The translations under genes were made by a program, and so were the position numbers. Shown piece after piece: positions 2,701 through 60,108 of a DNA stretch of 64,000 bases. The stretch's first letter is position 1, and each line of letters starts with the position of its first letter. The DNA comes from Marchantia polymorpha subsp. ruderalis (Eukaryota; Streptophyta; Marchantiopsida; Marchantiales; Marchantiaceae): NCBI GenBank assembly GCA_037833965.1, contig AP031352.1:10582501-10646500 (forward strand), given 5' to 3'. The notes beneath the pieces were generated by a model that was given only the letters and a program-made list of their open reading frames with translations, ran no database searches and was not told the DNA's origin.

Positions 2701-2711
2701 AAGGATTTACC

Positions 2712-30400: not shown

Positions 30401-30842
30401 TCCCACACAGACTTGTCCAGGTTGCCCCGAGGTATAACACGATGCAGACGAAGTATGTAACCATCCTCGGAATATACCTGCCAATGTACACAAATCACAC
30501 ATACACCGACCATGTTCAGGTATCGTTTGGTTTCGCAATATCAATGAAGCCATGTCTTCTTAAAACATGCCAAAGCAAAAGCGAAGGTTGCAGTTTATTT
30601 GTCACTACTCTGCTTTAGAACAATGATGAGTCGAGCCGACAGAGTATCTATTAGTAATTAAGACCACTAACCTCATGCTCTTCGCAATTGTATCCTCGAG
30701 GAAGTACATGAACCTCGCAGAAGGTCAACGACGCAGGCGCATCCATCTCCAGCATCTCGACGCATTGGCTCACAAGAGCCAGAGTAGCAATTAGAGTAGC
30801 TAGTGACAGCCAGGATAATAAGGGCCGATTGCTCGACCCCAT
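27498..30842 (-). CDS. extensin-like acid lipase C, intact
   Basis: Minus-strand exons: 30842-30672, 30477-29116, 28995-28870, 28751-28608, 28494-28433, 28297-28233, 28066-27974 and 27832-27498, giving 785 residues. All junctions are GT-AG and their phases agree with copies A and B. Residues 1-28 look like a signal peptide. The lipase signature GYNCEEHE plus [16 protein letters not shown] spans about 50-73. A Pro/Ser/Gly extensin-like domain ([10 protein letters not shown] units) occupies about 110-430, and the alpha/beta-hydrolase core follows from about 450. The proposed triad is Ser552 in VGVSL, Asp724 in YGGQD and His753 in HYAHFD. Typical family members are near 400 residues with no such insertion. 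The elbow reads G-V-S-L-S instead of G-H-S-L-G. Probably a secreted, wall-associated esterase, inferred from domains. The 120-bp intron 2 is stop-free and in frame. Confidence 0.8.
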
Positions 30843-32264: not shown

Positions 32265-32269
32265 ATAAA
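32265..32269. other. target-site duplication, left
   Basis: ATAAA directly precedes the TG that opens the first LTR. The same five bases follow the CA that closes the third LTR. Confidence 0.85.
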
Positions 32270-33221
32270 TGTAATAACCCACTAAAGGCTAAAACTGCAA
32301 TATAGTGGTAGAAAGGTCGAACCCACAGGGACAGAGGAACACACAGGGTACAAAGTGTCACGTTTTAACAGACTATTGAGGAGTTTGAATTCTCAGGCAA
32401 CTGTCACTCCCAGAAATACTGCAAGTGTCCACTCGGAGCGCACTCGGAGGTCGCACAGTGCAGCGTAACACACACACACACACACACACACACCTGAAAC
32501 TACAGAACACAACCCAGAGATCCGTTAGGACCTCTACTTCAAGATTTCAGGGGGAAGTCTCTCACGAGCACACTCGGCAAAGCTGCGGGCAGTGACTTCC
32601 AACTCCGGCTTTTACAACGCTTCCACTAGCTTGCTGCTAGTGTAGGAAACCCGGTTTGGACTACCTACTTCGGATCGAAGTCACTCAGACGCGGTGAACA
32701 ACACTCTCAACTCACAAAACGCGCAGAGAACACAGGTCCACACTGAAGGACTCACTGTGAAACATTCCAGTAACACAATAACAGTCTATTGAAGAGTTTG
32801 AATTCTCAGGCACTTGTCATTCCCAGAAATACTACAGGGGTTACCCTCAAGGCACCTGCTGCAGCGTAACCTGAATTTACAACCAAGGCTTACACGAAGT
32901 AGCAAAACTTCACTTTGGCATTCAGGGGAAAAATCCCAAAGGAGTACAATCAGAAAGAAACACTCGAAGGTGTAGGGGCGAAACTGTTCAAGTATCTAAC
33001 TAGTCACTGGCTCTGAGCATCGGCAGTCACCCGTCGGTGCAGTTCCGAACTACTCAAGTCTCTAACCAATGTACTAGCTCTGAACATTCGGCCGAAGGCC
33101 TTCAGCTACAAAATGCGGAACGCTAAGTTGTAACTCCTCATGCGTGGTGACAGAATTCAAGGACACAAACACGCAAAGGAAATGGGTTCCTGATCTATAC
33201 TTCTGAGTTTGGGAAAGAACC

Positions 33222-33250
33222 CCAGGCAAAACGCCTGGAACTATTTTATA
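33222..33250 (-). promoter_or_regulatory. LTR core promoter: TATA box plus hairpin
   Basis: Minus-strand TATAAAATAG (33250-33241) is followed within 3 bp by a perfect stem-loop CCAGGC-GTTTT-GCCTGG (33238-33222). It places the RNA start near 33215 and so defines about 4.47 kb of U3. The same pair sits in the other LTRs, with TATA at 44451-44460, 55661-55670 and 63688-63697. Confidence 0.6.
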
Positions 33251-33286
33251 CCTTCTAAGTCCTACCTAACACTACACTGCACTACG

Positions 33287-36200
33287 CTACGCGCCTGCAC
33301 GGAACCACGCTACACTACACTCCGCGGAACCTGTACTACGTCTCCTGCGCGGCCGACTGCCGCGCACTAACTCCCTACCCTGCCACTCTTCCGCTCGACT
33401 GCGCAGTCCCAACCGCTGCAACGCCGCGGACACCTCCCCCTCGAGGGCGGACATGGTATCCTGTGCCTTCGACAGAAAAGCTTCGAGCTTCTTTGCTACC
33501 TTCCGCCGACTCCTACTGTCGCCTGACAACAACCCGGCTGCGCGCAATTCAAACTCACGCAGTGTGAGTTTCTCCTGCGCCTTCACTTCCCAGTGAGCGT
33601 AGCCCTTGAGACAGTGGGCGACTCGCCTCGCCGTCTCCACCTTCGTGCGATCCGCCTCCTTCCTGCGATCCTCTTCAATTATCACTAATTGCGATTCGGC
33701 TTCAGCACGTTGCGCTCTCAATTCGCCACACTCTGACTGTAACCTGCGGATTAATTCTTCATCCGCCTGCCGTGCGAGCTGACATTGTTCCAACAACCGC
33801 GTCTGTCGCACGAGCTCCTCTGACAAAATCCGATTCTGGGCCTGCTCAGAATCGAGTGCTTCCTTGACCTTCACCTGCTCCTTGGTGAGCTCGCCCAGTT
33901 TCTCATCCTTCATCTTCTCGGTGTGCTTGTAGAACTTCTGATTAAGCTTGTACTGACCCCACAAGCACTCATGCTTCTCCTTCAAGTCCCTCAACTCCTG
34001 GTCCACTCTAGCTAATAGCTTGCTGGTGTGGACTTTAGTGCGAGTCCGCCTGCGCACTAACTCGATGTAAGATCCCGGCTGGAGTGGGTCGGCGTATTTA
34101 TCGACCTTGCGATCCAAGTACCGCAGCAACGGAATCACCTGCTCAGAGAGCGCCGCCGCCGGCGCTCCAACAATTTCCTCCTCCTCCTCCTCGGTGTCTT
34201 CTGCTCCTGACATTTCTTCCGTGGAGCCCCCGTCGTCATCATCCGAGTGGAGAATTTCAGTCGCCATTGATTGCGTCGGCGACTGCCCCGAGTGGGGCTG
34301 CACGTCGTCGACATGTGCTGCCTGCGAAGGCACGGCTGCAGCCTCGCTGCTCGTCGCCAAAATGTCTAAGGCGGAAGGCGAATGTACCCGAGCGGCATCC
34401 CCGTCGCTCGCTTGTTGATTGCCTACCGCGTTCTCTCTGTCGCCGTCGTCCGCCGCCGAAGGCGATTGAGCGGAGGGTGGCTGCGCGGGGTTGGATTGCG
34501 CATCGCGCATCGAGATTTCATCCCGCGGGCAGTCACTCCGCTCCTCCGTCTGCTGCTCCCTTGATCGGTCCGTGGGGGCTGTGCCCGGCCCGTGCGCAGG
34601 CGCATTTGCCGGCGCCTTGTCCGCCGCAGGCGTAGCGCCGCGGACATCTATCGCCGAAGGCGACATGGCCGGGGGCCGCACGCCCGATGTTCCTTGGCCT
34701 ATAGGCCCTACCGCCGAAGGCGCATCTATCGGCGGACTTCCCGCCGATGGTGCGGCCTCCGCACGCTCTCTGCTCGTATCTCCTCGGCTCGAAGGCCCTG
34801 GCGCCGAAGGCGCAAATTGCGGCGCGTGGTGCGCCGGAGGGTCTGGCCCCGAGGGCCGATGTCTCGTAGGCGGTTCTTCCGCCGGCTCCTTCCCCTTCCT
34901 CCGTTGGAACGGGGGTGATTCTTGCCTGTGCACAGGCGGCACGTGTGGAGGTGTCCTGTGCGCAGGCGACCTGTGCACAGGCGACCTGTGCACAGGTGAG
35001 CGCCTGTGCACAGGCGGACTGCTCCTTCCCACGCGTAAGCGTAGATCCACGTCCACTTGTGTTCGCCGGTCCGCGGAGGCTCGTCCGTCCGCGGAGGTTC
35101 GCCTGTGCGCAAACGGAACATCTGTCCGCACCGCACGTGGTAACTCCGGAGGCCCTTGGCCCGTAGGCGGCCTCTCTCCCGACGAGGTTGCAGCGTGGCC
35201 CGTTGCTCCTGCGGTCGTCCGCGCTTCCTCTCGCCTTTCTGGCGACGCACTTCCTATCTCCGTCGCAATCGTCGCCGTGTCCGCACTGTCGGCTGGTAAC
35301 ACCAGTCTGCGTGCCTTCTGCTTCGGCCGGCTGTATGGCTCGCACAGCGGCCGCGGTCGAATGGGAGCAGAGGGTTCTTGATGCTGCTCCTCTTCAGACT
35401 CTTTCCTCCATCGCCGCTTCCGCGGCACTCGCGCTGCAGGGGTGTGTCTCCCTTCGTCCCTCCGTCTTGATGGGGTAGAAGTCGGTGACTCCTCTGCATC
35501 CGTGTCGACCTCGTTCTCCCGCACATACTTCCCGGGATGGTCGATGGACAATGGCGGAAAATGTTCAAGCTCCGCCGCTGTCAAACAATTCCGCTGTCGA
35601 TAAAAATTGATGAGGAAAGGAGAAAGATGGTTTAGAGTTCCCCCCTTCTCCTCAAACGCGTGCTGTCGCATCACCCTGTGCAGGATGCTCGCCCAGTGAA
35701 TTGGAGTTCCCTCGATGACGCACTCCACAAAAGAGACCTGCCACAATGTGATGTAGCAGGCGCGGTGCGGCTGCAGTAATTGCATCAGCGCCGCGGACAA
35801 AGTCCGGCGAAATCGATCCTTGTAATCACGGGTCCTGTACCCATTCTTGGTAGACCTCCCGGTCTTGAACAGCTCCACAAATTGCGCCTCTTCTTGTTTG
35901 GTCACCTTGATGCTCTCACTGTCGAAAAGGAGATGCCCTGGCATGCCAGCACATCTTCCCAACGCCTGCGCCCAATCTTGGACTGTCCACCGATCAACAT
36001 GCGGACGCAATCCGCGCGAGGGTGGTCCCTGTGGCTCTAGCCACTCGCGCACCATATTCGCACAGATGTAATTCCATCCCCATAGCAAGAAATCGAGCTT
36101 TCTTGCTATTAAGCGCTCTTCGAAAGCGCGCAGCCCGTTCTGCGGCAGGCGAAGTGGCACCATCCGCAATCTGCTCGGTCTCGTCATTGCGTTCCTGGGG

Positions 36201-36439
36201 TTCGCTCGCCCGCTCATTCTACTTCCGCACTGCCCGCGTTTCTTTCTCTCTCGGCAAACTCTAATCGCTCTCAATTCCAAATCACGCGCACTCACTTCTC
36301 CCTCAATCAACAAGAAATCTCCTGTGCGACGACGTCGAGAATGTTCCGCAGCCAGCAGATGGATGCGCGCAGCGCGCACAAGCGATTGGAATCGCGAATT
36401 CAAGAATGGGACGTTCTCCGCCGCCCGGTCGAAGGTCAT
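33287..36439 (-). CDS. U3-encoded 1,050-residue protein (LTR 1)
   Basis: An ATG-started frame wholly inside the LTR, sense to gag-pol and ending about 37 bp before the LTR TATA box. Residues 1-300 form a folded, Trp/Arg-rich part (LDFLLWGWNYICANMVREWL, then HRACYITLWQVSFVECVI and HLSPFLINFYRQ). This recalls, loosely, the plant-transposon domain in accessory proteins of Athila-type elements. Residues about 300-720 are disordered and rich in Pro, Ser and Arg with PVHRS-type repeats. An acidic patch (EEMSGAEDTEEEEEE) follows, and about 780-960 is a long coiled coil. There is no RT, integrase, capsid or envelope motif. In the full transcript this copy lies 3' of pol, beyond the polypurine tract. 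Function unknown. Confidence 0.75.
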   Translation of the reverse strand: MTFDRAAENVPFLNSRFQSLVRAARIHLLAAEHSRRRRTGDFLLIEGEVSARDLELRAIRVCRERKKRGQCGSRMSGRANPRNAMTRPSRLRMVPLRLPQNGLRAFEERLIARKLDFLLWGWNYICANMVREWLEPQGPPSRGLRPHVDRWTVQDWAQALGRCAGMPGHLLFDSESIKVTKQEEAQFVELFKTGRSTKNGYRTRDYKDRFRRTLSAALMQLLQPHRACYITLWQVSFVECVIEGTPIHWASILHRVMRQHAFEEKGGTLNHLSPFLINFYRQRNCLTAAELEHFPPLSIDHPGKYVRENEVDTDAEESPTSTPSRRRDEGRHTPAARVPRKRRWRKESEEEQHQEPSAPIRPRPLCEPYSRPKQKARRLVLPADSADTATIATEIGSASPERREEARTTAGATGHAATSSGERPPTGQGPPELPRAVRTDVPFAHRRTSADGRASADRRTQVDVDLRLRVGRSSPPVHRRSPVHRSPVHRSPAHRTPPHVPPVHRQESPPFQRRKGKEPAEEPPTRHRPSGPDPPAHHAPQFAPSAPGPSSRGDTSRERAEAAPSAGSPPIDAPSAVGPIGQGTSGVRPPAMSPSAIDVRGATPAADKAPANAPAHGPGTAPTDRSREQQTEERSDCPRDEISMRDAQSNPAQPPSAQSPSAADDGDRENAVGNQQASDGDAARVHSPSALDILATSSEAAAVPSQAAHVDDVQPHSGQSPTQSMATEILHSDDDDGGSTEEMSGAEDTEEEEEEIVGAPAAALSEQVIPLLRYLDRKVDKYADPLQPGSYIELVRRRTRTKVHTSKLLARVDQELRDLKEKHECLWGQYKLNQKFYKHTEKMKDEKLGELTKEQVKVKEALDSEQAQNRILSEELVRQTRLLEQCQLARQADEELIRRLQSECGELRAQRAEAESQLVIIEEDRRKEADRTKVETARRVAHCLKGYAHWEVKAQEKLTLREFELRAAGLLSGDSRSRRKVAKKLEAFLSKAQDTMSALEGEVSAALQRLGLRSRAEEWQGRELVRGSRPRRRRSTGSAECSVAWFRAGA

Positions 36440-37683
36440 GGTCGGCTCTTGGTCGTGAAGAACGTCTCACTTGATGGCCGCGCCGGCTGTACGCTGGAAC
36501 GGTCTTCGCTCTCACGCGCGGCTTCACGCTCCGCCGTCGTCGATTAAACTCTCACGCTCGAATTGGCGGATTTGAACTCCGCGAGCGTGTCACCCTGCGG
36601 ACATGGGGGCGTAGCGCCGAAGGCGAGTTTTCCGCCTTGCGCGGTACACTTGTTCGTACCGCCCCTCGGCCAATCTCCTTCTGCCTTGACGCGTGTGTCC
36701 GCATGTCGGACAAAAATTCAACTCCTGCCTGTGCGCAGGCAGGAGCCTCGGCGGATCCTCCGCCGGTGCGGAACTTCATCCTCCTGTGCACAGGCGTTCG
36801 CCTGTGCGCAGGCGAATTCCGTCCGCGGCGTTGCGCTGGCGCGGAAGGCGTTGACCGTGGTCAGCCGTCTCCGTCCAGCCTGTCCGTTCCTTATCTCTCC
36901 GTCGGCGCTTCCGCCGCCGCAACTCCGTCCGTCCAAGAGCGCATCCACCCGTGCCGTCCGCATGGTCCGTACCGATTGGATTACTCTGGCGGCTCCTCCG
37001 ACGTACGCGGCGCTGCGCTGGCGCGGAAGGCGCCGTACACTTTCTACCTCACAAGGCGCATTTCTAGGGCCCAAGGCGGATTTTCCGCCGACGCCGAAGT
37101 GCCTGTGCACACGCGAACGCCTGTGCGTAGGCGGACTTCGCGCCTTCCCTAACCCTACTTCGCCTGTGCACAGGCGAACGCCTTCGTCCGCGCATAGGAC
37201 AAAACTTGATTCCCCCTTCCGCGTAGGCGGAATTCGCGCCGGTGGCGAACTCCTTCCGCCGTAGGCGACCGCCTCCGTTTCTTCCAGTAGCGATAACTCC
37301 CCAAGTCCTCGTCCGTTCCAAACGTTCTTGGGCTCGTTGGAATCAGTGCGTCGAGCTCTTTCCAACGGGATCCTAACTTGGTCAAGGCGCCCGAGGGTTG
37401 ACCTAATTAGGGAGGGTTTCCCTACAGCCGCGGACGCAACCTCCGAAGGCGGGTTTTGCGCCTTGCGCCGTAGAGATCCTAACTGCAGAGCTCGCAGGGA
37501 GGGTGGTGCCTGCCCTTACTGCTGCACCCCAAATCCCAGATTCTACAAGATCCCTCGAGAATCCCCGCGATCTTCCGGATTCACTCTGTTTTGATGTACC
37601 GAAGGCCATTTACAATGCTGCCAGGGTACAGTTTTCCAAAAATGTTTTAATTTCCTCAAAATTGCCAAAAGTGGAGTACCACA

Positions 37684-37697
37684 TGCCCCCCTCCTCA
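37684..37697 (-). other. polypurine tract, unit 1
   Basis: Minus-strand GAGGAGGGGGGCA directly abuts the TGTGG start of the 3' LTR, about 24 bp after the pol stop. Confidence 0.8.
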
Positions 37698-37720
37698 ATT
37701 GTGAGCGCCCACGCGAACAC

Positions 37721-40552
37721 TCACATGTGGTATTTCTTCAACCGCCACCCGTTTACTCGGGTACCTAACAAATCGCCGGCCAGGTCCGCGAGTTGGATGG
37801 ATCCATTCGGGAAGACTTCGACAACCCTGTAAGGTCCCATCCATCTTAGGTGCAGTTTGCCTGGGAATCTGGCATGCCTGCTGTCGTAGAGTAATGCCAA
37901 ATCACCCGCCTGCAGTAGTACCGGTTTGATCTTTTTATCGTATCTCTCCTTTCGGCGGAGCTGGATTTTCCTGGTGCGATCTTCGGCGTCTCGTCTCCTC
38001 TCATCCAGCAGCGTGACCTCCTGTAACCTGTAGAGCTGACTCTCCTCTGCGCCCATCCTCTGCAAATCCAACGTTCGTTGGGTGGGTACTTCAAATTCGA
38101 TCGGGAGGATCGGGTGTTGCCCATACACCAGAAAGTATGGTGTCTGTTTGGTCGTGATCTTCTCAGCTGTGCGGTACGCCCATAGAGCGGCTGCTAGCTT
38201 CGTATCCCAGTCGTGAGCGTGATTCACCGTGACCTTGAGTAGTATTTTACACAGCAGGCCATTGGACTTCTCCGTCAGTCCATTTGCCTTGGGATTGTAT
38301 GGAGTAGTCTTCCGGTGCTTGATGTGGAAATACCGTGTCAGATCTTCGATGATCTGATTCAGAAAATGCGTGCCCCGGTCGCTGACTAGCTCTAAGGGAC
38401 ATCCGTAGCGTGTGATGATCGACTCAAACAAGAATGCTGCCACTGTGGCAGCATCATCCCTTCTGGTGGCTCTGGCCTCTACCATTTTGGTGGCATAGTC
38501 CGTTGCTACCAGAATGTAGCGCCTTCGTGTACTTCTAGTCACTGGTTGTATCGGCCCTACAAAGTCAATACCCCACTTTTCGAAAGGTGCTAGAGGCATG
38601 ATGGGAGTCAGGGGCCAGCGTGTTGTAGGCGTCGGTCTCCCCGTCCTCTGGCAACTGTCGCACTTGCGGATGTAATCGAGAACATCCTTAAACATGGTCG
38701 GCCACCAATACCCCGCATTTAGGATCTTTGTGACCGTGTTCCTGGTGGCATAGTGTCCACCCGCCTCCTCAGTATGCATCGCACTCACTATTCTTGGTAC
38801 CTCTGATTCCTCCAGGCACCTGCATAAGCGCTCATCTGCCATCTTTTTGAACAAAACCCCCTGCTGGAGTTGGTACGGACCTGCCTTATGAATAAAGACA
38901 GTTCGCTGTTCCAAATCCATGCCTTCGAGACACTGGAGGGTTAGCAGATATCGATACAGGTCGGCATAGCGGGACTCATGTCCTGCAGACAACTGAAATA
39001 ACTCTTCATCTGGAAAATCGTCCACCAATTCCTCCTCTGTCGGCTGTGTCCATAATCGGGACAAGTAATCCGCATTTTCGTGGTGCACCCCTTTCCTGGT
39101 CTGGACTGTGTAGGTGAACTCTTGTAGTAACAACACCCACCTGGCGATTCGACCGGATAGGTCGGCTTTCTTGACTAGGTGTTGCAATGCGTAGTGGTCC
39201 ACATGGAACACAAACTCGTAGCAGATTAGGTAGTGACGGAACTTTTTACAGGAGTACACCATCCCCAACGCTTCTCTCTCCGTCGTGGTGTACTTCCGCT
39301 CTGCTAGAGACAGCTGTCGGCTCGCGAAGTAGATCGGGTAGTCCTTGTTGTTGTCATCCTTTTGACTCAGTACTACACCGATGGCGAATGCCGAGGTGTC
39401 AACGTAAACATGGAATGGTCGATTCCAGTCTGGACTCCTTAGTACGGGAGCAGTCGTGAGTTTCGCTTTAAGAGTCTCAAAGGCTGACTGCTGGTTCGCA
39501 CCCCAAGCATAAGGCTCGTCCTTCTTCAACAACTTGGTCAGGTCCGCCGCCAGTATTGCATACAGGTGTATGAATCTTCGGTAGTAGCCCACATGACCCA
39601 GGAATGCTCGCAGCTCTCTTAGATTCGTGGGTGGCTCAAGCTCGAGTATAACCTTGACCTTCTCGACGTCCACCGCAATGCCGTCTGCCGAGACCCGATG
39701 ACCCAACAAGATCCCACTAGTCATGAAGAAGAAGCACTTCTCGGGATGCAGTGATAAACTGCTCTCTCTACATTTATCGAAGGTCTGCTTCAAGTGACTT
39801 AGGTGTTCAGACCGCTTCCCAAAGACACAGAAGTCATCTATGAATATTTCCAGGAACTTCCTCAGTTGTTCCTGAAAGATATTGGTCATCATCCGTTGAA
39901 AGGTGGCAGGCGCGTTGCACAGACCGAAGGGCATCTTGTGGTATGCGTAAGTTCCCCAGTCGGTTGTGAACGTAGTTTTATCCTTGTCCTGTTCACGGAT
40001 AGACACCTGATTGTAACCTGAGAACCCATCCAGGAAGCTATAACATTCATGTCCGGCAACATGGTCTAGAATGGCATCCGTGAATGGTAACGGGTGATGA
40101 TCCTTGCGTGTTGCTGCATTCAACTTCCGGAAATCCTGACACACTCGTATCTTACCCGTCAACTTCTTGGGTACGATAACAATCGGCGACACCCACTCAC
40201 TGCTGAGCACAGGGTAAATAATACCAGCGCTCAAGTACTTATCGATCTCCTCTTTAACTAGCAAGGAGTATTTTGGGTTGAGGCGATACTGGCGCTGTCG
40301 TATGGGTACTGAGTCGTCCAGTAAATCGATACGGTGTTCCCCATACCGTGCAGGTATCCCCTTCATGTCTTTGATCTTCCAGGCGAAGACGTCTACATAA
40401 TGGCTAAGGAATGCCTGTACTTTCCTTAGCTCGTCTCCTCTCACTGCGCTTGATACCTTCAAGCACTTGCCGGGACTGAGTTGTACTTCGTGACAGTCAC
40501 TAGGGTCGACAATGCCCTCGGTGTGACTCGTCTCACTCCTTCCCAGTCCCAC
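37721..40552 (-). CDS. pol: pol: RT-RNase H-integrase, unit 1
   Basis: About 943 residues in the phase of gag. Reverse transcriptase: FLDGFSGYNQ near 173-182 and catalytic FIDD at 237-240, a variant of YxDD. RNase H: VYVDTSAFAIGVVLSQ from about 382 through HENADYLSRL near 491-500. Integrase: zinc-binding H593, H600, C631 and C634, and catalytic D663, D725 (SDRGTHF) and E761 (NGLTEKSN). The GPYRV motif lies near the C-terminus. No chromodomain. There is no ATG at the left edge, in keeping with expression as an extension of gag. The frame looks whole and is matched in unit 2. Confidence 0.92.
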   Translation of the reverse strand: MGLGRSETSHTEGIVDPSDCHEVQLSPGKCLKVSSAVRGDELRKVQAFLSHYVDVFAWKIKDMKGIPARYGEHRIDLLDDSVPIRQRQYRLNPKYSLLVKEEIDKYLSAGIIYPVLSSEWVSPIVIVPKKLTGKIRVCQDFRKLNAATRKDHHPLPFTDAILDHVAGHECYSFLDGFSGYNQVSIREQDKDKTTFTTDWGTYAYHKMPFGLCNAPATFQRMMTNIFQEQLRKFLEIFIDDFCVFGKRSEHLSHLKQTFDKCRESSLSLHPEKCFFFMTSGILLGHRVSADGIAVDVEKVKVILELEPPTNLRELRAFLGHVGYYRRFIHLYAILAADLTKLLKKDEPYAWGANQQSAFETLKAKLTTAPVLRSPDWNRPFHVYVDTSAFAIGVVLSQKDDNNKDYPIYFASRQLSLAERKYTTTEREALGMVYSCKKFRHYLICYEFVFHVDHYALQHLVKKADLSGRIARWVLLLQEFTYTVQTRKGVHHENADYLSRLWTQPTEEELVDDFPDEELFQLSAGHESRYADLYRYLLTLQCLEGMDLEQRTVFIHKAGPYQLQQGVLFKKMADERLCRCLEESEVPRIVSAMHTEEAGGHYATRNTVTKILNAGYWWPTMFKDVLDYIRKCDSCQRTGRPTPTTRWPLTPIMPLAPFEKWGIDFVGPIQPVTRSTRRRYILVATDYATKMVEARATRRDDAATVAAFLFESIITRYGCPLELVSDRGTHFLNQIIEDLTRYFHIKHRKTTPYNPKANGLTEKSNGLLCKILLKVTVNHAHDWDTKLAAALWAYRTAEKITTKQTPYFLVYGQHPILPIEFEVPTQRTLDLQRMGAEESQLYRLQEVTLLDERRRDAEDRTRKIQLRRKERYDKKIKPVLLQAGDLALLYDSRHARFPGKLHLRWMGPYRVVEVFPNGSIQLADLAGDLLGTRVNGWRLKKYHM

Positions 40553-40561
40553 AGTTAATTG

Positions 40562-43393: not shown

Positions 43394-43439
43394 TCACCGA
43401 GCATGGCTGCTCGTAAAAACCCCGGTGTTGACGCAACTG

Positions 43440-43457
43440 TCCCCGGCAGCGGCGCCA
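43440..43457 (-). other. primer-binding site, unit 1
   Basis: Minus-strand TGGCGCCGCTGCCGGGGA complements the 3' end of plant tRNA-Asp (UCCCCGGCAACGGCGCCA) with one mismatch. It lies 22 bp inside the 5' LTR end, a spacing seen in Athila/Tat-type elements. Confidence 0.75.
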
Positions 43458-43479
43458 AAAAGAAGTTGTCGGCTTCTTA

Positions 43480-48893: not shown

Positions 48894-48907
48894 TGCCCCC
48901 CTCCTCA
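48894..48907 (-). other. polypurine tract, unit 2
   Basis: Same purine tract as in unit 1, abutting LTR 2. Confidence 0.8.
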
Positions 48908-48930
48908 ATTGTGAGCGCCCACGCGAACAC

Positions 48931-51762: not shown

Positions 51763-51771
51763 AGTTAATTG

Positions 51772-54603
51772 CTATTCGTCTTCCGGCTGAATAGCTTCCG
51801 GCTCTTCTTCTTCTCCCACCGAACAGCAGGCAACGAATCCCACGAAGTAATCGGATTCGGTACCACTGGAATCCGATCGCGCGGTCGACTCACTGTCCTC
51901 TCCCGATGTGTAACCTGCACTTGTCGATGGGGTCTCTCCTTCGTGCCTGACCCTATTCCAGGGCACCGTAATGGTTTTGGTCGGTTCCGAAGGATGGGGA
52001 AACTTAAGGCGATGCCTTCGCCAATCACATCTGACTTGTGCGCCATATAGCCATGGTCGCCCGAGCAGAACGTCATAGCCCTGCTTCATCATCGGTTGAA
52101 GGATGATATACGTCAACCGAAAGTCCGCACCCCCGATGATTGTCTTGACATTGCGCAGCATACCTGCAGGCATTCTCCGCGTCTGATCCGCTAATCTCAA
52201 CACACGCTTCGAGGGTTCGTATTGACTGAACCCCAAGGCTCTCGCTGTATCCTCCGTCATTATGTTGACTCCTGATCCAGAGTCGATTGGCACCCTGCGT
52301 ACAGAACACCCTGCTATTTCCACATCGATCTCTGGTGGCCCTTGGTCTTCGCTCTCCACTTGATATACTTGAGAGGATGTGGATGCGCGCGGCTTCCGCG
52401 GATGCCGTAGCGAAAGCATCAACATTCTCCGATACGTCTTATTGTCCTCCAAGAGCTGCTTGAACGTGATGTTCACTTTTCGACTCCCGAGATCTTCGAC
52501 CAAGTCATAGTGGGCGCGTTGGGTCGCCGGGGTCGGCGACGCTCTGCGAGGTTCCACGGTGGCTGCCAACTTCGCCCCAAGGGAGGATGTCAAGTCTGGC
52601 CGCGGTGGATCCTTGTGAGTGCGGATCGCTTCCTTCAACAGGTTGGCTACCTCGTTGCGGATATCCGGAGCATAGTCCCGTTTCAGTAGGCGCACTGGCT
52701 CGTCCTCGACTGCTGTCTGGGGGCGCACTGCTGGTGCCTCTCTCGTAGCCGAAGACTTCCGAGCAGGTCGCAAGTCGGACTTGCTGGATGTCTTCTGCTT
52801 CCCTTTTCCCGTCCGGTCGTCGGTTCTCCGTTCGTGCTTGCGAGTGTCACGCTCTTGCTCCTTCGATTTCTTGGAACTACGAGTTTCGACCCGTGCGCAC
52901 ATAACCTCTTCAGCCGGCCACTCTTCGTCTTCGTCATCTCCGTCGGAACCTACTTCGACCTGGTTAACTTGGACGTCCTCCTTGGCAGGAGTGTTCACAA
53001 ATCGTACCGCTGGCCGAGGGACTGGTGGCTGATCACACTCTGGCGCAGTATGCCCGATCTTCTTGCAATTACTACATGTCGGAGCATAATCGTTTCGCCT
53101 CTTTGGATGGGGACACTGCGGTGAGAAGTGCCCAACTTCCCCGCAATTATAACAAGCTCGCGGTGGCGGTGGGTCAAACGTCCCTGGAGGTGCTCTCCGC
53201 CTCACGGGTACTGTAGTGGCCCGATCCACCGGAATATATCGTGGGACTTGCATTGCTGAAACTGCAGGAGGGGTAGGAACCGACTGGACGGCGTAGGCTG
53301 TCTCTTCGCTAGCCTCTCCATAGTACTGAGGGTGCTCTCCGTAGTACGGTTGTGCCCATTCTACTGCGTTGACTGGATATGACGGACGGGTGGTAAGGCA
53401 CTCGGTGTTTGCATGTCCCACCGCCCCGCACGTAGTACACCATAAGTTCGCTCGCACTCTCCCGGGTGATTTTCGGCGATCATGCCCGCCTACCACTTGA
53501 ACCTTGAGATCGGCGAAGTCCTTCACAAGGGTCTCCATCTTCGAAGCTATATCTCCCGGCGCTCTGTCCGCAGTCACTCGTCGGGTGCCCTTTTTCTTCG
53601 CTGACCCATGCTTCTTCCTCTTCTTCTCCTCCTCCGACGATGAGGTTTCCTCTTCTTCGGATGAGGAACGGTTCTCGTCCGAAGACGATTCCTCCGATGA
53701 CGGAGTTGTACCTCTACGTCGTCTTCGCCCTCCCTTCGGTTTTCGCTCCTTCGACTCCCGTCTCTCTCTCCCTCTTCGGTTGAGAGTGGAAGTTTCGAAG
53801 GCTTCTGCCGATGCAATCACATCCTCAATAGTGTCGCACTTGCTGCGTCGGCAAAAAGTCTCCATCTCCCGAGTTAAACCGGTCACGTACCAATCCACAG
53901 CTTGTTGTACCGAGAAAGGGGACCCTGGTCCTGTTTTCGGTATTCTGTCAAGGAGGTCCAGAAATCTCTCAGTGTAGTCACGCAGACTCTCCTTCTTCTC
54001 TCGCTGCAAATTACGTAACTTTGTCAAAACCCGGCTGTCGTAGCCGAGCTCGCGAAAGCGGCGAAGGAACTTCTCCTTCAGCTGGGCCCATGTCGTCAAC
54101 CCAGTCGGATCGATGCTCTCGTGATTATACCAACTCCTCGCTTTCTTCCGCAGAAGGCTTGGAAAGATCCTTAGCCGGTCGTCGTCTGCGATCTCGCGAT
54201 TGGCAATAGACACCGATTCGAACAACTTGATGTATGAGTCTGCATCGTCATCATCCCCACTCCCTTTGTACTTCGGGTAGGAATGTTTAGTAATCGGCTG
54301 AGGTAGCCGCACATTGGCTTGTCCGTCCGCCATCGGTGTGTCTGGCGACGGTTCTCGGGCGGTCGGTTCTACTTCACTAGGCGGGTCCGTGCAAGGAATA
54401 TCTAGCAGAACTGTAAGCACCAAGTTTGGTTCCGAGTCGCCGGGGGTAGGTTCCCCAAGGATGTCGGCCGAACTAGGCTTAGGTACTCTTTTTGATGTTT
54501 TCTTGTTTTGACGCCGTGTCTCTTCCACGGCCTTCTCTAAATCTCGTCGGAACTTGCGGACAGCTCTAGCACTTAGGTTGCTCCCGCTAGCCCCAGTCGA
54601 CAT
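51772..54603 (-). CDS. gag: gag-protease, unit 2
   Basis: Same 943-residue layout as unit 1: capsid domain, three CCHC knuckles, C-terminal aspartic protease, UAG-CAA-UUA end. It differs by only a few residues, so it is a true second copy and unlikely to be a pure assembly echo. Confidence 0.92.
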   Translation of the reverse strand: MSTGASGSNLSARAVRKFRRDLEKAVEETRRQNKKTSKRVPKPSSADILGEPTPGDSEPNLVLTVLLDIPCTDPPSEVEPTAREPSPDTPMADGQANVRLPQPITKHSYPKYKGSGDDDDADSYIKLFESVSIANREIADDDRLRIFPSLLRKKARSWYNHESIDPTGLTTWAQLKEKFLRRFRELGYDSRVLTKLRNLQREKKESLRDYTERFLDLLDRIPKTGPGSPFSVQQAVDWYVTGLTREMETFCRRSKCDTIEDVIASAEAFETSTLNRRGRERRESKERKPKGGRRRRRGTTPSSEESSSDENRSSSEEEETSSSEEEKKRKKHGSAKKKGTRRVTADRAPGDIASKMETLVKDFADLKVQVVGGHDRRKSPGRVRANLWCTTCGAVGHANTECLTTRPSYPVNAVEWAQPYYGEHPQYYGEASEETAYAVQSVPTPPAVSAMQVPRYIPVDRATTVPVRRRAPPGTFDPPPPRACYNCGEVGHFSPQCPHPKRRNDYAPTCSNCKKIGHTAPECDQPPVPRPAVRFVNTPAKEDVQVNQVEVGSDGDDEDEEWPAEEVMCARVETRSSKKSKEQERDTRKHERRTDDRTGKGKQKTSSKSDLRPARKSSATREAPAVRPQTAVEDEPVRLLKRDYAPDIRNEVANLLKEAIRTHKDPPRPDLTSSLGAKLAATVEPRRASPTPATQRAHYDLVEDLGSRKVNITFKQLLEDNKTYRRMLMLSLRHPRKPRASTSSQVYQVESEDQGPPEIDVEIAGCSVRRVPIDSGSGVNIMTEDTARALGFSQYEPSKRVLRLADQTRRMPAGMLRNVKTIIGGADFRLTYIILQPMMKQGYDVLLGRPWLYGAQVRCDWRRHRLKFPHPSEPTKTITVPWNRVRHEGETPSTSAGYTSGEDSESTARSDSSGTESDYFVGFVACCSVGEEEEPEAIQPEDE

Positions 54604-54649
54604 TCACCGAGCATGGCTGCTCGTAAAAACCCCGGTGTTGACGCAACTG

Positions 54650-54667
54650 TCCCCGGCAGCGGCGCCA
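54650..54667 (-). other. primer-binding site, unit 2
   Basis: Same tRNA-Asp-type 18-mer, 22 bp inside LTR 3. Confidence 0.75.
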
Positions 54668-54689
54668 AAAAGAAGTTGTCGGCTTCTTA

Positions 54690-57600
54690 TGTAATAACCC
54701 ACTAAAGGCTAAAACTGCAATATAGTGGTAGAAAGGTCGAACCCATAGGGACAGAGGAACACACAGGGTACAAAGTGTCACGTTTTAACAGACTATTGAG
54801 GAGTTTGAATTCTCAGGCAACTGTCACTCCCAGAAATACTGCAAGTGTCCACTCGGAGCGCACTCGGAGGTCGCACAGTGCAGCGTAACACACACACACA
54901 CACACACACACACCTGAAACTACAGAACACAACCCAGAGATCCGTTAGGACCTCTACTTCAAGATTTCAGGGGGAAGTCTCTCACGAGCACACTCGGCAA
55001 AGCTGCGGGCAGTGACTTCCAACTCCGGCTTTTACAACGCTTCCACTAGCTTGCTGCTAGTGTAGGAAACCCGGTTTGGACTACCTACTTCGGATCGAAG
55101 TCACTCAGACGCGGTGAACAACACTCTCAACTCACAAAACGCGCAGAGAACACAGGTCCACACTGAAGGACTCACTGTGAAACATTCCAGTAACACAATA
55201 ACAGTCTATTGAAGAGTTTGAATTCTCAGGCACTTGTCATTCCCAGAAATACTACAGGGGTTACCCTCAAGGCACCTGCTGCAGCGTAACCTGAATTTAC
55301 AACCAAGGCTTACACGAAGTAGCAAAACTTCACTTTGGCATTCAGGGGAAAAATCCCAAAGGAGTACAATCAGAAAGAAACACTCGAAGGTGTAGGGGCG
55401 AAACTGTTCAAGTATCTAACTAGTCACTGGCTCTGAGCATCGGCAGTCACCCGTCGGTGCAGTTCCGAACTACTCAAGTCTCTAACCAATGTACTAGCTC
55501 TGAACATTCGGCCGAAGGCCTTCAGCTACAAAATGCGGAACGCTAAGTTGTAACTCCTCATGCGTGGTGACAGAATTCAAGGACACAAACACGCAAAGGA
55601 AATGGGTTCCTGATCTATACTTCTGAGTTTGGGAAAGAACCCCAGGCAAAACGCCTGGAACTATTTTATACCTTCTAAGTCCTACCTAACACTACACTGC
55701 ACTACGCTACGCGCCTGCACGGAACCACGCTACACTACACTCCGCGGAACCTGTACTACGTCTCCTGCGCGGCCGACTGCCGCGCACTAACTCCCTACCC
55801 TGCCACTCTTCCGCTCGACTGCGCAGTCCCAACCGCTGCAACGCCGCGGACACCTCCCCCTCGAGGGCGGACATGGTATCCTGTGCCTTCGACAGAAAAG
55901 CTTCGAGCTTCTTTGCTACCTTCCGCCGACTCCTACTGTCGCCTGACAACAACCCGGCTGCGCGCAATTCAAACTCACGCAGTGTGAGTTTCTCCTGCGC
56001 CTTCACTTCCCAGTGAGCGTAGCCCTTGAGACAGTGGGCGACTCGCCTCGCCGTCTCCACCTTCGTGCGATCCGCCTCCTTCCTGCGATCCTCTTCAATT
56101 ATCACTAATTGCGATTCGGCTTCAGCACGTTGCGCTCTCAATTCGCCACACTCTGACTGTAACCTGCGGATTAATTCTTCATCCGCCTGCCGTGCGAGCT
56201 GACATTGTTCCAACAACCGCGTCTGTCGCACGAGCTCCTCTGACAAAATCCGATTCTGGGCCTGCTCAGAATCGAGTGCTTCCTTGACCTTCACCTGCTC
56301 CTTGGTGAGCTCGCCCAGTTTCTCATCCTTCATCTTCTCGGTGTGCTTGTAGAACTTCTGATTAAGCTTGTACTGACCCCACAAGCACTCATGCTTCTCC
56401 TTCAAGTCCCTCAACTCCTGATCCACTCTAGCTAATAGCTTGCTGGTGTGGACTTTAGTGCGAGTCCGCCTGCGCACTAACTCGATGTAAGATCCCGGCT
56501 GGAGTGGGTCGGCGTATTTATCGACCTTGCGATCCAAGTACCGCAGCAACGGAATCACCTGCTCAGAGAGCGCCGCCGCCGGCGCTCCAACAATTTCCTC
56601 CTCCTCCTCCTCGGTGTCTTCTGCTCCTGACATTTCTTCCGTGGAGCCCCCGTCGTCATCATCCGAGTGGAGAATTTCAGTCGCCATTGATTGCGTCGGC
56701 GACTGCCCCGAGTGGGGCTGCACGTCGTCGACATGTGCTGCCTGCGAAGGCACGGCTGCAGCCTCGCTGCTCGTCGCCAAAATGTCTAAGGCGGAAGGCG
56801 AATGTACCCGAGCGGCATCCCCGTCGCTCGCTTGTTGATTGCCTACCGCGTTCTCTCTGTCGCCGTCGTCCGCCGCCGAAGGCGATTGAGCGGAGGGTGG
56901 CTGCGCGGGGTTGGATTGCGCATCGCGCATCGAGATTTCATCCCGCGGGCAGTCACTCCGCTCCTCCGTCTGCTGCTCCCTTGATCGGTCCGTGGGGGCT
57001 GTGCCCGGCCCGTGCGCAGGCGCATTTGCCGGCGCCTTGTCCGCCGCAGGCGTAGCGCCGCGGACATCTATCGCCGAAGGCGACATGGCCGGGGGCCGCA
57101 CGCCCGATGTTCCTTGGCCTATAGGCCCTACCGCCGAAGGCGCATCTATCGGCGGACTTCCCGCCGATGGTGCGGCCTCCGCACGCTCTCTGCTCGTATC
57201 TCCTCGGCTCGAAGGCCCTGGCGCCGAAGGCGCAAATTGCGGCGCGTGGTGCGCCGGAGGGTCTGGCCCCGAGGGCCGATGTCTCGTAGGCGGTTCTTCC
57301 GCCGGCTCCTTCCCCTTGCTCCGTTGGAACGGGGGTGATTCTTGCCTGTGCACAGGCGGCACGTGTGGAGGTGTCCTGTGCGCAGGCGACCTGTGCACAG
57401 GCGACCTGTGCACAGGTGAGCGCCTGTGCACAGGCGGACTGCTCCTTCCCACGCGTAAGCGTAGATCCACGTCCACTTGTGTTCGCCGGTCCGCGGAGGC
57501 TCGTCCGTCCGCGGAGGTTCGCCTGTGCGCAAACGGAACATCTGTCCGCACCGCACGTGGTAACTCCGGAGGCCCTTGGCCCGTAGGCGGCCTCTCTCCC

Positions 57601-60103
57601 GACGAGGTTGCAGCGTGGCCCGTTGCTCCTGCGGTCGTCCGCGCTTCCTCTCGCCTTTCTGGCGACGCACTTCCTATCTCCGTCGCAATCGTCGCCGTGT
57701 CCGCACTGTCGGCTGGTAACACCAGTCTGCGTGCCTTCTGCTTCGGCCGGCTGTATGGCTCGCACAGCGGCCGCGGTCGAATGGGAGCAGAGGGTTCTTG
57801 ATGCTGCTCCTCTTCAGACTCTTCCCTCCATCGCCGCTTCCGCGGCACTCGCGCTGCAGGGGTGTGTCTCCCTTCGTCCCTCCGTCTTGATGGGGTAGAA
57901 GTCGGTGACTCCTCTACATCCGTGTCGACCTCGTTCTCCCGCACATACTTCCCGGGATGGTCGATGGACAATGGCGGAAAATGTTCAAGCTCCGCCGCTG
58001 TCAAACAATTCCGCTGTCGATAAAAATTGATGAGGAAAGGAGAAAGATGGTTTAGAGTTCCCCCCTTCTCCTCAAACGCGTGCTGTCGCATCACCCTGTG
58101 CAGGATGCTCGCCCAGTGAATTGGAGTTCCCTCGATGACGCACTCCACAAAAGAGACCTGCCACAATGTGATGTAGCAGGCGCGGTGCGGCTGCAGTAAT
58201 TGCATCAGCGCCGCGGACAAAGTCCGGCGAAATCGATCCTTGTAATCACGGGTCCTGTACCCATTCTTGGTAGACCTCCCGGTCTTGAACAGCTCCACAA
58301 ATTGCGCCTCTTCTTGTTTGGTCACCTTGATGCTCTCACTGTCAAAAAGGAGATGCCCTGGCATGCCAGCACATCTTCCCAACGCCTGCGCCCAATCTTG
58401 GACTGTCCACCGATCAACATGCGGACGCAATCCGCGCGAGGGTGGTCCCTGTGGCTCTAGCCACTCGCGCACCATATTCGCACAGATGTAATTCCATCCC
58501 CATAGCAAGAAATCGAGCTTTCTTGCTATTAAGCGCTCTTCGAAAGCGCGCAGCCCGTTCTGCGGCAGGCGAAGTGGCACCATCCGCAATCTGCTCGGTC
58601 TCGTCATTGCGTTCCTGGGGTTCGCTCGCCCGCTCATTCTACTTCCGCACTGCCCGCGTTTCTTTCTCTCTCGGCAAACTCTAATCGCTCTCAATTCCAA
58701 ATCACGCGCACTCACTTCTCCCTCAATCAACAAGAAATCTCCTGTGCGACGACGTCGAGAATGTTCCGCAGCCAGCAGATGGATGCGCGCAGCGCGCACA
58801 AGCGATTGGAATCGCGAATTCAAGAATGGGACGTTCTCCGCCGCCCGGTCGAAGGTCATGGTCGGCTCTTGGTCGTGAAGAACGTCTCACTTGATGGCCG
58901 CGCCGGCTGTACGCTGGAACGGTCTTCGCTCTCACGCGCGGCTTCACGCTCCGCCGTCGTCGATTAAACTCTCACGCTCGAATTGGCGGATTTGAACTCC
59001 GCGAGCGTGTCACCCTGCGGACATGGGGGCGTAGCGCCGAAGGCGAGTTTTCCGCCTTGCGCGGTACACTTGTTCGTACCGCCCCTCGGCCAATCTCCTT
59101 CTGCCTTGACGCGTGTGTCCGCATGTCGGACAAAAATTCAACTCCTGCCTGTGCGCAGGCAGGAGCCTCGGCGGATCCTCCGCCGGTGCGGAACTTCATC
59201 CTCCTGTGCACAGGCGTTCGCCTGTGCGCAGGCGAATTCCGTCCGCGGCGTTGCGCTGGCGCGGAAGGCGTTGACCGTGGTCAGCCGTCTCCGTCCAGCC
59301 TGTCCGTTCCTTATCTCTCCGTCGGCGCTTCCGCCGCCGCAACTCCGTCCGTCCAAGAGCGCATCCACCCGTGCCGTCCGCATGGTCCGTACCGATTGGA
59401 TTACTCTGGCGGCTCCTCCGACGTACGCGGCGCTGCGCTGGCGCGGAAGGCGCCGTACACTTTCTACCTCACAAGGCGCATTTCTAGGGCCCAAGGCGGA
59501 TTTTCCGCCGACGCCGAAGTGCCTGTGCACAGGCGAACGCCTGTGCGTAGGCGGACTTCGCGCCTTCCCTAACCCTACTTCGCCTGTGCACAGGCGAACG
59601 CCTTCGTCCGCGCATAGGACAAAACTTGATTCCCCCTTCCGCGTAGGCGGAATTCGCGCCGGTGGCGAACTCCTTCCGCCGTAGGCGACCGCCTCCGTTT
59701 CTTCCAGTAGCGATAACTCCCCAAGTCCTCGTCCGTTCCAAACGTTCTTGGGCTCGTTGGAATCAGTGCGTCGAGCTCTTTCCAACGGGATCCTAACTTG
59801 GTCAAGGCGCCCGAGGGTTGACCTAATTAGGGAGGGTTTCCCTACAGCCGCGGACGCAACCTCCGAAGGCGGGTTTTGCGCCTTGCGCCGTAGAGATCCT
59901 AACTGCAGAGCTCGCAGGGAGGGTGGTGCCTGCCCTTACTGCTGCACCCCAAATCCCAGATTCTACAAGATCCCTCGAGAATCCCCGCGATCTTCCGGAT
60001 TCACTCTGTTTTGATGTACCGAAGGCCATTTACAATGCTGCCAGGGTACAGTTTTCCAAAAATGTTTTAATTTCCTCAAAATTGCCAAAAGTGGAGTACC
60101 ACA
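54690..60103 (-). repeat. LTR 3 (outer 5' LTR)
   Basis: 5,414 bp, closing in CA at 60103 and followed by ATAAA. This outer end proves that the LTR includes the 1,050-codon frame: the repeat runs unbroken to the target-site duplication. It differs from LTRs 1 and 2 at fewer than about ten bases that I noticed. Confidence 0.9.
55707..58859 (-). CDS. U3-encoded 1,050-residue protein (LTR 3)
   Basis: Third copy of the U3 frame, full length, with a few amino-acid differences from the copies in LTRs 1 and 2. Upstream of it in the same LTR lies 1.2 kb of GC-rich DNA packed with short palindromes, a candidate control region. Confidence 0.75.
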   Translation of the reverse strand: MTFDRAAENVPFLNSRFQSLVRAARIHLLAAEHSRRRRTGDFLLIEGEVSARDLELRAIRVCRERKKRGQCGSRMSGRANPRNAMTRPSRLRMVPLRLPQNGLRAFEERLIARKLDFLLWGWNYICANMVREWLEPQGPPSRGLRPHVDRWTVQDWAQALGRCAGMPGHLLFDSESIKVTKQEEAQFVELFKTGRSTKNGYRTRDYKDRFRRTLSAALMQLLQPHRACYITLWQVSFVECVIEGTPIHWASILHRVMRQHAFEEKGGTLNHLSPFLINFYRQRNCLTAAELEHFPPLSIDHPGKYVRENEVDTDVEESPTSTPSRRRDEGRHTPAARVPRKRRWREESEEEQHQEPSAPIRPRPLCEPYSRPKQKARRLVLPADSADTATIATEIGSASPERREEARTTAGATGHAATSSGERPPTGQGPPELPRAVRTDVPFAHRRTSADGRASADRRTQVDVDLRLRVGRSSPPVHRRSPVHRSPVHRSPAHRTPPHVPPVHRQESPPFQRSKGKEPAEEPPTRHRPSGPDPPAHHAPQFAPSAPGPSSRGDTSRERAEAAPSAGSPPIDAPSAVGPIGQGTSGVRPPAMSPSAIDVRGATPAADKAPANAPAHGPGTAPTDRSREQQTEERSDCPRDEISMRDAQSNPAQPPSAQSPSAADDGDRENAVGNQQASDGDAARVHSPSALDILATSSEAAAVPSQAAHVDDVQPHSGQSPTQSMATEILHSDDDDGGSTEEMSGAEDTEEEEEEIVGAPAAALSEQVIPLLRYLDRKVDKYADPLQPGSYIELVRRRTRTKVHTSKLLARVDQELRDLKEKHECLWGQYKLNQKFYKHTEKMKDEKLGELTKEQVKVKEALDSEQAQNRILSEELVRQTRLLEQCQLARQADEELIRRLQSECGELRAQRAEAESQLVIIEEDRRKEADRTKVETARRVAHCLKGYAHWEVKAQEKLTLREFELRAAGLLSGDSRSRRKVAKKLEAFLSKAQDTMSALEGEVSAALQRLGLRSRAEEWQGRELVRGSRPRRRRSTGSAECSVAWFRAGA

Positions 60104-60108
60104 ATAAA
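60104..60108. other. target-site duplication, right
   Basis: ATAAA, matching 32265-32269. Confidence 0.85.

What the first reader, a model, noticed from the sequence alone, without database searches (positions are those of the whole stretch)
32270..60103. LTR retrotransposon whose 5.4-kb LTRs each contain a 1,050-codon gene inside U3
Seen: TG...CA repeat ends, flanking ATAAA, a primer site against one LTR end, a polypurine tract against the other, and the long frame between LTR start and LTR TATA box. The frame is therefore in U3, 3' of pol in the RNA and duplicated in both LTRs. Known: coding U3 regions are familiar from MMTV (sag) and lentiviruses (nef overlap). Extra frames in plant Athila/Tat elements usually lie between pol and the polypurine tract, not in the LTR. 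Inference: an accessory gene has been absorbed into U3, or the polypurine tract has moved upstream of it.
Basis: partly seen in the sequence, partly recalled or inferred. Interest (0 to 1): 0.9.

Follow-up and report, generated by a model that had tools for sequence, protein, structure and literature searches.

The report
Liverwort retrotransposon with gene in LTRs
A young family of virus-like jumping elements in a liverwort (Marchantia) carries a real, selected protein gene inside its long terminal repeats, so every copying event doubles the gene and even lone leftover repeats keep it.

Summary
Confirmed. The element is on the minus strand and is a tandem: three 5,414-bp LTRs, two internal regions, ATAAA on both sides. 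Each LTR holds a 1,050-codon frame between its start and its only TATA box, so in U3. The frame is a gene: diversity 0.037 at third and 0.008 at second codon positions; at least 39 of 44 copies uninterrupted; dN/dS 0.17-0.29 over the conserved domains against divergent LTR relics. A second young family (55-58% identical in those domains) has the gene in the same place on both sides of pol, so the arrangement is old. No homologue outside Marchantia and no Pfam domain in the protein were found. The tandem fits unequal crossing-over inside the LTR. Function is inferred: a nuclear accessory regulator with a long coiled coil, not Env. No paper listing or passage I saw describes a U3 gene in a plant element; the closest parallel is MMTV sag.

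The parts
32265..32269 (.). target-site duplication ATAAA (left)
60104..60108 (.). target-site duplication ATAAA (right)
54690..60103 (-). 5' LTR (sense order), 5,414 bp
43480..48893 (-). middle LTR; recombinant between the 3' and 5' LTR alleles
32270..37683 (-). 3' LTR, 5,414 bp
33287..36439 (-). U3 gene, 1,050 aa, in the 3' LTR
44497..47649 (-). U3 gene, 1,050 aa, in the middle LTR
55707..58859 (-). U3 gene, 1,050 aa, in the 5' LTR (99.7% identical)
33241..33252 (-). LTR TATA box GGTATAAAATAG (also 44451-44462 and 55661-55672)
37684..43479 (-). internal region 2 (pol side joins the 3' LTR)
48894..54689 (-). internal region 1 (differs from region 2 at 3 of 5,796 nt)
40562..43393 (-). gag-protease frame, 943 aa (second copy 51772-54603)
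37721..40552 (-). RT-RNaseH-integrase frame, 943 aa (second copy 48931-51762)
40556..40564 (-). UAG CAA UUA between gag-PR and pol, which share one reading frame; TMV-type leaky stop context (recalled); second copy 51766-51774
43439..43457 (-). primer binding site TGGCGCCGCTGCCGGGGAC (second copy 54649-54667)
37684..37696 (-). polypurine tract GAGGAGGGGGGCA abutting the LTR (second copy 48894-48906)
62722..64000 (-). one end of a separate, probably solo LTR of the same family; the other end is at C3:10650617, 5,396 bp away; GTGGG duplication on both sides; the middle was not read

Best explanation
This is a recently active Ty3/gypsy LTR retrotransposon (no chromodomain, no second RNase H detected) of Marchantia whose U3 carries a protein gene. 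SHOWN: the gene lies wholly between the LTR start and the LTR TATA box; target duplications lie just outside the gene-bearing LTR, in solo LTRs too; the protein is under purifying selection; the same arrangement exists in a second young family and in divergent LTR relics. INFERRED: the genomic RNA starts after the TATA box, so the gene sits once, 3' of pol, and reverse transcription puts a copy in each LTR. The gene is probably expressed from the roughly 1.2 kb of U3 in front of it (about 50%; splicing of genomic RNA about 35%), which would make each LTR, solo LTRs included, a stand-alone gene. The product (N-terminal helical domain, variable Pro/Ser/Ala-rich linker, a helix of about 160 residues that is presumably a coiled coil, no membrane helix) is most likely a self-associating nuclear accessory regulator of the element's own U3 rather than an Env (about 55%). 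The tandem in the window most likely arose by unequal crossing-over between LTRs, with the breakpoint inside the U3 gene.
For: Anatomy. Duplications: 8 of 10 solo-like LTRs among 44 fetched copies plus the LTR at the window's right edge, i.e. 9 of 11; of 11 multi-LTR elements with both outer ends read (ends paired by distance), 9 match exactly, 1 at 4 of 5 bases, 1 not. Selection: pi at codon positions 1/2/3 = 0.009/0.008/0.037, and 0.0055/0.0019/0.038 in aa 86-330; pN/pS 0.157 over 946 pairs, and 29 non-synonymous to 76 synonymous among variants shared by 4 or more copies, for 2,385 and 765 sites; dN/dS 0.17-0.29 in 6 alignments over the N or C domain against divergent relics not picked by protein score. 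Family 2: PPT, LTR start, frame, with ORF-pol-ORF-pol-ORF at C4:3413973-3437857 and ORF-pol-ORF at C9:20722534-20735763; 46 of 53 scored copies have no stop. Long helix 807-969. No membrane helix: max 19-residue hydropathy 1.14. Least variable block of the U3 leader is LTR 1101-1200, pi 0.005, just 5' of the ATG. Crossing-over: the middle LTR matches the 3' LTR at 5 sites (572-2786) and the 5' LTR at 2 sites (3683, 5358).
Against: No expression data, so promoter versus splicing is undecided, and there is only one TATA box in the LTR. The N domain could not be folded (mean pLDDT 45.9), so DNA binding is unproven. The 44 copies were picked by protein similarity, which lowers pN; among singletons the ratio is weaker (111 non-synonymous to 117 synonymous) and the 14 closest pairs give pN/pS 0.40-0.45. 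Two solo-like LTRs (L021, whose two flanks come from different places, and L030) and one multi-LTR pairing (L039/L047) lack matching duplications. dN/dS is 0.63-0.95 in 2 of 5 alignments that include linker, and dS was saturated in 2 of 12; against family 2, pS is 0.69-0.81, close to saturation. Family 2's target duplications were not read.
Confidence: 0.6

Rival explanations
1. The frame is env-like: translated from a spliced genomic RNA and acting on membranes or in cell-to-cell movement.
For: It is sense-oriented and 3' of pol, where plant env-like frames sit (PMC7264820, parts 1-2 of 3 read). Four acceptor-like sites exist 5' of the ATG.
Against: No membrane-spanning stretch: highest 19-residue hydropathy 1.14, and 1.22 in family 2. 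Long helix and charged, low-complexity linker. No Pfam family is shared by more than 2 of 29 members, and none of the weak hits listed is an envelope family.
Confidence: 0.12
2. The true LTR is shorter and the gene is internal.
For: Plant extra frames are described between pol and the 3' LTR (PMC7264820; PMC6317226, passages).
Against: Target duplications flank the 5.4-kb repeat, solo LTRs included; the gene lies 5' and 3' of pol in single elements.
Confidence: 0.01
3. The open frame is chance or a low-complexity artefact of a GC-rich repeat.
For: The linker-coding part is repeat-rich and evolves fast.
Against: Frame nearly three times longer than any in 200 simulated LTRs; strong codon-position bias, strongest outside the linker; 55-58% identity in the N and C domains of a second family.
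Confidence: 0.01
4. The three-LTR tandem is an assembly error or a reverse-transcription product rather than unequal crossing-over.
For: Template switching is a published route to complex elements (PMC1950507, abstract); near-identical repeats are hard to assemble, and no reads were available.
Against: The middle LTR is a 3'-LTR/5'-LTR recombinant and the internal regions differ at 3 sites. 15 of 48 scored pol copies have a same-strand neighbour at 11.09-11.24 kb; four primer sites stand exactly 11,184 bp apart on C2.
Confidence: 0.12

Closest known systems
MMTV sag (LTR gene of mouse mammary tumour virus)
   Same: A protein gene in the LTR; LTR conservation follows the gene (one passage of PMC4667437 seen).
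   Different: MMTV is a vertebrate retrovirus with env; here a plant Ty3/gypsy element without a detected env and with a much longer protein. That sag lies in U3, and that the proteins are unrelated, is recalled, not tested.
Plant Ty3/gypsy OTA elements (Athila, Tat, Retand, Grande) with extra frames
   Same: Non-chromovirus Ty3/gypsy, extra frame 3' of pol, often large LTRs; some extra proteins are nuclear or SMC-like (PMC7264820 parts 1-2; PMC6317226 passages).
   Different: Their extra frames are described between pol and the 3' LTR, not in the LTR. Athila ORF-1, Transposase_28 and plant mobile domain were not detected here.
VANC anti-silencing proteins of Arabidopsis VANDAL transposons
   Same: Family-specific short motifs repeated in the element's own DNA and changing between families (passages of PMC5735166; here).
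   Different: VANDALs are DNA transposons (recalled); no sequence relation was tested; binding was not tested here; the pattern was not reproduced in family 2.

Membership tests
LTR retrotransposon, Ty3/gypsy | gag, protease, RT, RNase H, integrase in that order; PBS, PPT, TG...CA LTRs, target duplication | tested here: met
Chromovirus | chromodomain in pol | tested here: not met
   no chromodomain hit in pol at E up to 1
Tat clade (OTA) | second (archaeal-type) RNase H | tested here: not met
   only RT_RNaseH and RT_RNaseH_2 hits; definition from PMC6317226
Athila clade (OTA) | pol groups with Athila in RT-RNaseH-INT trees | tested here: inconclusive
   (61 sequences, chosen from the 120 listed hits): groups with Riccia sorocarpa pol (support 0.989) in a clade of liverwort, fern and unnamed metagenome sequences; no named Athila reference was in the tree
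Athila clade (OTA) | Athila ORF-1 domain (PF03078) in the extra frame (16% of members, PMC6317226) | tested here: not met
   not among the 21 families hit by any of 29 members at E up to 10 (HMMER filters drop most weak hits)
Element with a U3-encoded gene (arrangement as in MMTV) | whole frame between LTR start and LTR TATA box, target duplications outside that LTR | tested here: met
Element with a U3-encoded gene (arrangement as in MMTV) | protein made from a U3 message | not testable with these tools
   no RNA or protein data available
Env-like extra frame | membrane-spanning segment | tested here: not met
VANC-type sequence-specific anti-silencing | protein binds family-specific motifs dense in its own element | tested here: inconclusive
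   motifs present and differing between this family and divergent relics, not reproduced in family 2; binding not tested

The most novel reading that the evidence does not exclude
The U3 gene encodes a coiled-coil, element-specific DNA-binding factor that recognises short (quasi-)palindromic motifs in its own U3 and keeps the LTR transcriptionally open, converging on VANC. Gene, promoter and targets then travel as one unit: every LTR, solo LTRs included, is a complete trans-acting anti-silencing module, and the recombination that normally kills an element leaves the module behind. Support: GCCTGYGCACAGGC-type motifs stand at 4 sites in the U3 leader and 5 in the linker-coding part of this LTR, with none in the N and C domain parts, R/U5 or 5.8 kb of internal DNA (1 in 32 kb of flank); divergent LTR relics have CCTACGCATAGG in the same two parts. 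Against: in family 2 the linker palindromes did not reappear in the U3 leader.
Probability: 0.17. Interest if true: 0.88.

Novelty: new variant of a known kind. Interest (0 to 1): 0.72.

Why it matters
LTRs are usually treated as non-coding control regions, and solo LTRs as dead remains. Here the LTR is 58% coding (3,153 of 5,414 nt) and the gene has been kept in U3 through the divergence of at least two young families. Seven of the eight solo LTRs with exact duplications among the 44 copies keep an uninterrupted frame, so recombination does not delete the accessory gene, and by anatomy gene copies should outnumber pol copies (not counted). It suggests that U3 coding is not limited to vertebrate retroviruses. 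It warns annotation pipelines that such LTRs may be called host genes: 26 of 28 relatives found are listed as M. polymorpha hypothetical proteins. It gives a model plant in which a U3 protein can be tested.

Tried and rejected
Fold of the protein: AlphaFold2 of the whole protein (mean pLDDT 52.5) is confident only for the C-terminal helices; the N domain alone was not (45.9), so no fold search was run. Pfam on the protein gave no hit; its 28 relatives gave scattered weak hits to 21 families, the best being Extensin_1 (E 0.00019, in one member, far below its cut-off) and CENP-K (E 0.0018, two members), neither consistent. An Rfam scan of one unit gave one sub-threshold miRNA hit inside the linker repeats, taken as chance. 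Tests of general inverted-repeat enrichment were weak and mixed. In family 2 the repeated linker palindrome (CCGACTGCGAGTCGG type) was not found in its U3 leader, so the motif argument does not generalise so far. A host tRNA for the primer site was not identified: a search for the complement of the primer site returned 1,192 exact places, with primer-site copies and any tRNA not separated. TAGCARYTA itself is not rare in the window (5 matches, 1.3 expected, 3 of them outside the element); the argument rests on its place between two frames in phase. Literature searches for coding LTRs in plants gave no such case in their listings; the library holds only CC0/CC BY/CC BY-SA papers. A first script on LTR ends was one base off at the 3' end and was replaced. 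Considered and rejected: Env function, shorter LTR, chance frame (see rivals).

Only the best-scoring candidates are scored by the genome search, so copy numbers are lower bounds and the 44 copies are biased towards similar proteins. Protein searches scored only the 7,972-7,992 candidates sharing most words. Of 12 end stretches fetched (L048, L049, L052-L055) showed no LTR end; L045 showed an LTR 5' end where a 3' end was expected, and L051 was preceded by a PPT (array).
Full report
WHAT IS THERE. The feature lies on the minus strand. In the window it is not one element but a tandem: LTR, internal, LTR, internal, LTR, with period 11,210 bp. The LTRs are 5,414 bp, TGTGGT...ATTACA, at 32270-37683, 43480-48893 and 54690-60103. 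ATAAA stands on both outer sides. The internal regions are 5,796 bp and carry, in sense order, a primer site 22 nt from the LTR end, a gag-protease frame, an RT-RNaseH-integrase frame, and GAGGAGGGGGGCA directly against the next LTR. The gag-protease and pol frames are in one phase, separated by UAG CAA UUA, the leaky stop context of tobacco mosaic virus (recalled). The 1,050-codon frame occupies LTR positions 1,245-4,397, and the only TATA[A/T]A in the LTR is at 4,434. It is therefore in U3. The stop-free stretch is 1,059 codons; in 200 first-order Markov versions of the LTR the maximum was 374.

The window lies in an unnamed 241-Mb genome of 9 contigs. A 1,211-residue protein annotated as M. 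polymorpha subsp. ruderalis (P0084) is 100% identical in it, so the host is that species or a very close one. The U3 protein was found in 44 scored places; more exist, since only the best of 14,038 candidates were scored. All 44 were fetched with flanks. Ten are solo-like, with no PPT before and no primer site after: 8 have exact 5-bp duplications directly outside the LTR of about 5.4 kb and 2 (L021, L030) do not; L021's two flanks match different parts of the family. The LTR entering the window at 62722 is an eleventh: its two ends are 5,396 bp apart with GTGGG on both sides, the middle not read. Multi-LTR elements with both outer ends read, paired by distance, number 11: exact duplications in 9 (this locus, L006/L008, L007/L018, L010/L011, L026/L009, L035/L034, L036/L041, L046/L037, L044/L050), 4 of 5 bases in L015/L014, none in L039/L047. 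Among the copies read, no member with duplications outside a shorter repeat was seen.

THE FRAME IS A GENE. Across the 44 copies, diversity is 0.0091, 0.0080 and 0.0371 at codon positions 1, 2 and 3; in residues 86-330 position 2 is 0.0019 and position 3 is 0.038. Pairwise pN/pS is 0.157 over 946 pairs. Variants shared by 4 or more copies are 29 non-synonymous to 76 synonymous (2,385 and 765 sites); singletons are 111 to 117, and the 14 closest pairs give 0.40-0.45, as expected if recent changes are less filtered. These copies were chosen by protein similarity, which biases pN down. Divergent LTR relics met beside a solo insertion (L057/L058) are free of that bias. Of 12 alignments to them, 6 over the N or C domain give dN/dS 0.17-0.29 (one of them running into the linker), 2 that include linker give 0.37-0.39, 2 in the linker give 0.63-0.95, and 2 are saturated; the aligned relic stretches carry 0-4 stops each. 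At least 39 of 44 frames have no internal stop and a length divisible by three; L012, L030, L035, L042 and L043 do not. The LTRs of one element or array differ by 0-0.47% in 15 comparisons, against a mean of 1.9% between all copies, so insertions are recent.

THE ARRANGEMENT IS OLD. In a divergent LTR the frame also begins about 1.25 kb after TGTGGTACC (L057:7102 and 8354). A second family, found through a Riccia pol query, has a unit of about 10,657 bp. At C4:3423200-3427200 the same polypurine block is followed by TGTGGTAA (set by eye) and a frame that is open for 857 codons to the end of the stretch (863), 58% identical in the N domain, 39% in the linker and 55% in the C-terminal part to the window protein. 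By coordinates its frame stands 5' and 3' of pol in a single element (C9:20722534, pol 20727004, 20733193) and as ORF-pol-ORF-pol-ORF in an array (C4:3413973-3437857); 46 of 53 scored copies have no stop. Family 2's target duplications were not read.

THE PROTEIN. It has an N-terminal region predicted helical at low confidence (about 85-330), a linker with 52% Pro/Ser/Ala/Gly/Thr (331-742), an acidic stretch, and C-terminal helices (760-1019) including one of about 160 residues (807-969), presumably a coiled coil. No 19-residue window exceeds hydropathy 1.14, so a membrane protein is unlikely. A basic motif RPKQKAR, present in 4 of the 5 proteins, could be a nuclear signal (inference). No Pfam family is detected in it, and none in more than 2 of 29 members of the family alignment. 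Two searches of 5.8 billion proteins, each scoring the roughly 8,000 best candidates, found homologues only in M. polymorpha and two unnamed assemblies, although Riccia pol proteins up to 77% identical are in the same database. So the gene is absent, unannotated or too divergent there.

HOW IT PROBABLY WORKS. The genomic RNA should start about 30 nt after the TATA box and carry the gene once, 3' of pol (inference from established retrotransposon biology). Reverse transcription then places one gene in each LTR. The gene would be about 7 kb or more from the RNA's 5' end, so it needs its own promoter or splicing. The block 45-144 nt before the ATG is the least variable of 13 windows in the U3 leader (pi 0.005), which fits a promoter or 5' leader but could also be a splice acceptor region. 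Motifs of this family are concentrated in the U3 leader and the linker-coding DNA: GCCTGYGCACAGGC types at 4 and 5 sites, none in the N domain, C domain, R/U5 and internal DNA, 1 in 32 kb of flank; divergent relics have CCTACGCATAGG in the same two parts. Motif diversity in the leader is lower than its surroundings (0.013 against 0.026, 48 nt only). In family 2, however, the linker palindromes were not found in the leader. A coiled-coil dimer reading a palindrome in its own U3 is a natural hypothesis, comparable to VANC (PMC5735166, passages). It is untested, and the motifs may instead be repeats that spread where they do no harm.

WHY A TANDEM. The middle LTR carries the 3' LTR's bases at positions 572, 1760, 2188, 2280 and 2786 and the 5' LTR's bases at 3683 and 5358. 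That is the product expected of unequal crossing-over between a 3' and a 5' LTR, with the breakpoint inside the U3 gene; the reciprocal product is a solo LTR. Arrays are common: 15 of 48 scored pol copies have a same-strand neighbour at 11.09-11.24 kb, and four primer sites stand exactly 11,184 bp apart on C2 (a capped list). Elements sharing an LTR are already known in plants (PMC1950507, abstract).

COMPARISON. By PMC6317226 (passages and section 13) this is a non-chromovirus Ty3/gypsy element without the Tat-type second RNase H. Its pol groups with Riccia sorocarpa pol (support 0.989). Extra frames in plant elements are reviewed as lying mostly between pol and the 3' LTR (PMC7264820, parts 1-2 of 3); no LTR-internal gene is mentioned in the parts read, nor in the listings. 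The arrangement is like MMTV sag (one passage of PMC4667437) without membership of that group. Hence: new variant of a known kind.

Noticed in passing
window 40556-40564 and 51766-51774 (-): gag-protease and pol are in one phase separated by UAG CAA UUA, the TMV-type readthrough context (recalled); probable stop-codon suppression for gag-pol in a liverwort element.
   Followed up: partly
flanks of L005, L006, L012, L014/L015, L017, L021-L024, L027, L029, L033, L039, L040, L042-L044: Many insertions lie inside other copies of the same or a related family, i.e. frequent self-nesting.
   Followed up: partly
G000 C8:5920574-5948572 and C5:17494559-17506350: Another Marchantia gypsy family (open frame about 2,039 codons, unit about 8.1 kb) also forms tandem arrays, so arrays are not special to the U3-gene families.
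   Followed up: no
window 6681-8849, 19988-21739, 28558-30513: Three diverged copies of a gene with a weak, below-cut-off lipase-region match (PF04083; two of the three) and a long Pro/Ser/Gly-rich repeat insert of varying copy number (99-bp unit at 6833-8014).
   Followed up: no
L057:7102 junction (C4 about 18.585 Mb): A divergent LTR begins directly at the truncated end of another; several gene-bearing LTR relics are clustered here.
   Followed up: partly
G000 whole genome: The exact 16-nt complement of the primer site occurs 1,192 times in 241 Mb (0 for the reversed control), so elements with this primer site are abundant.
   Followed up: no
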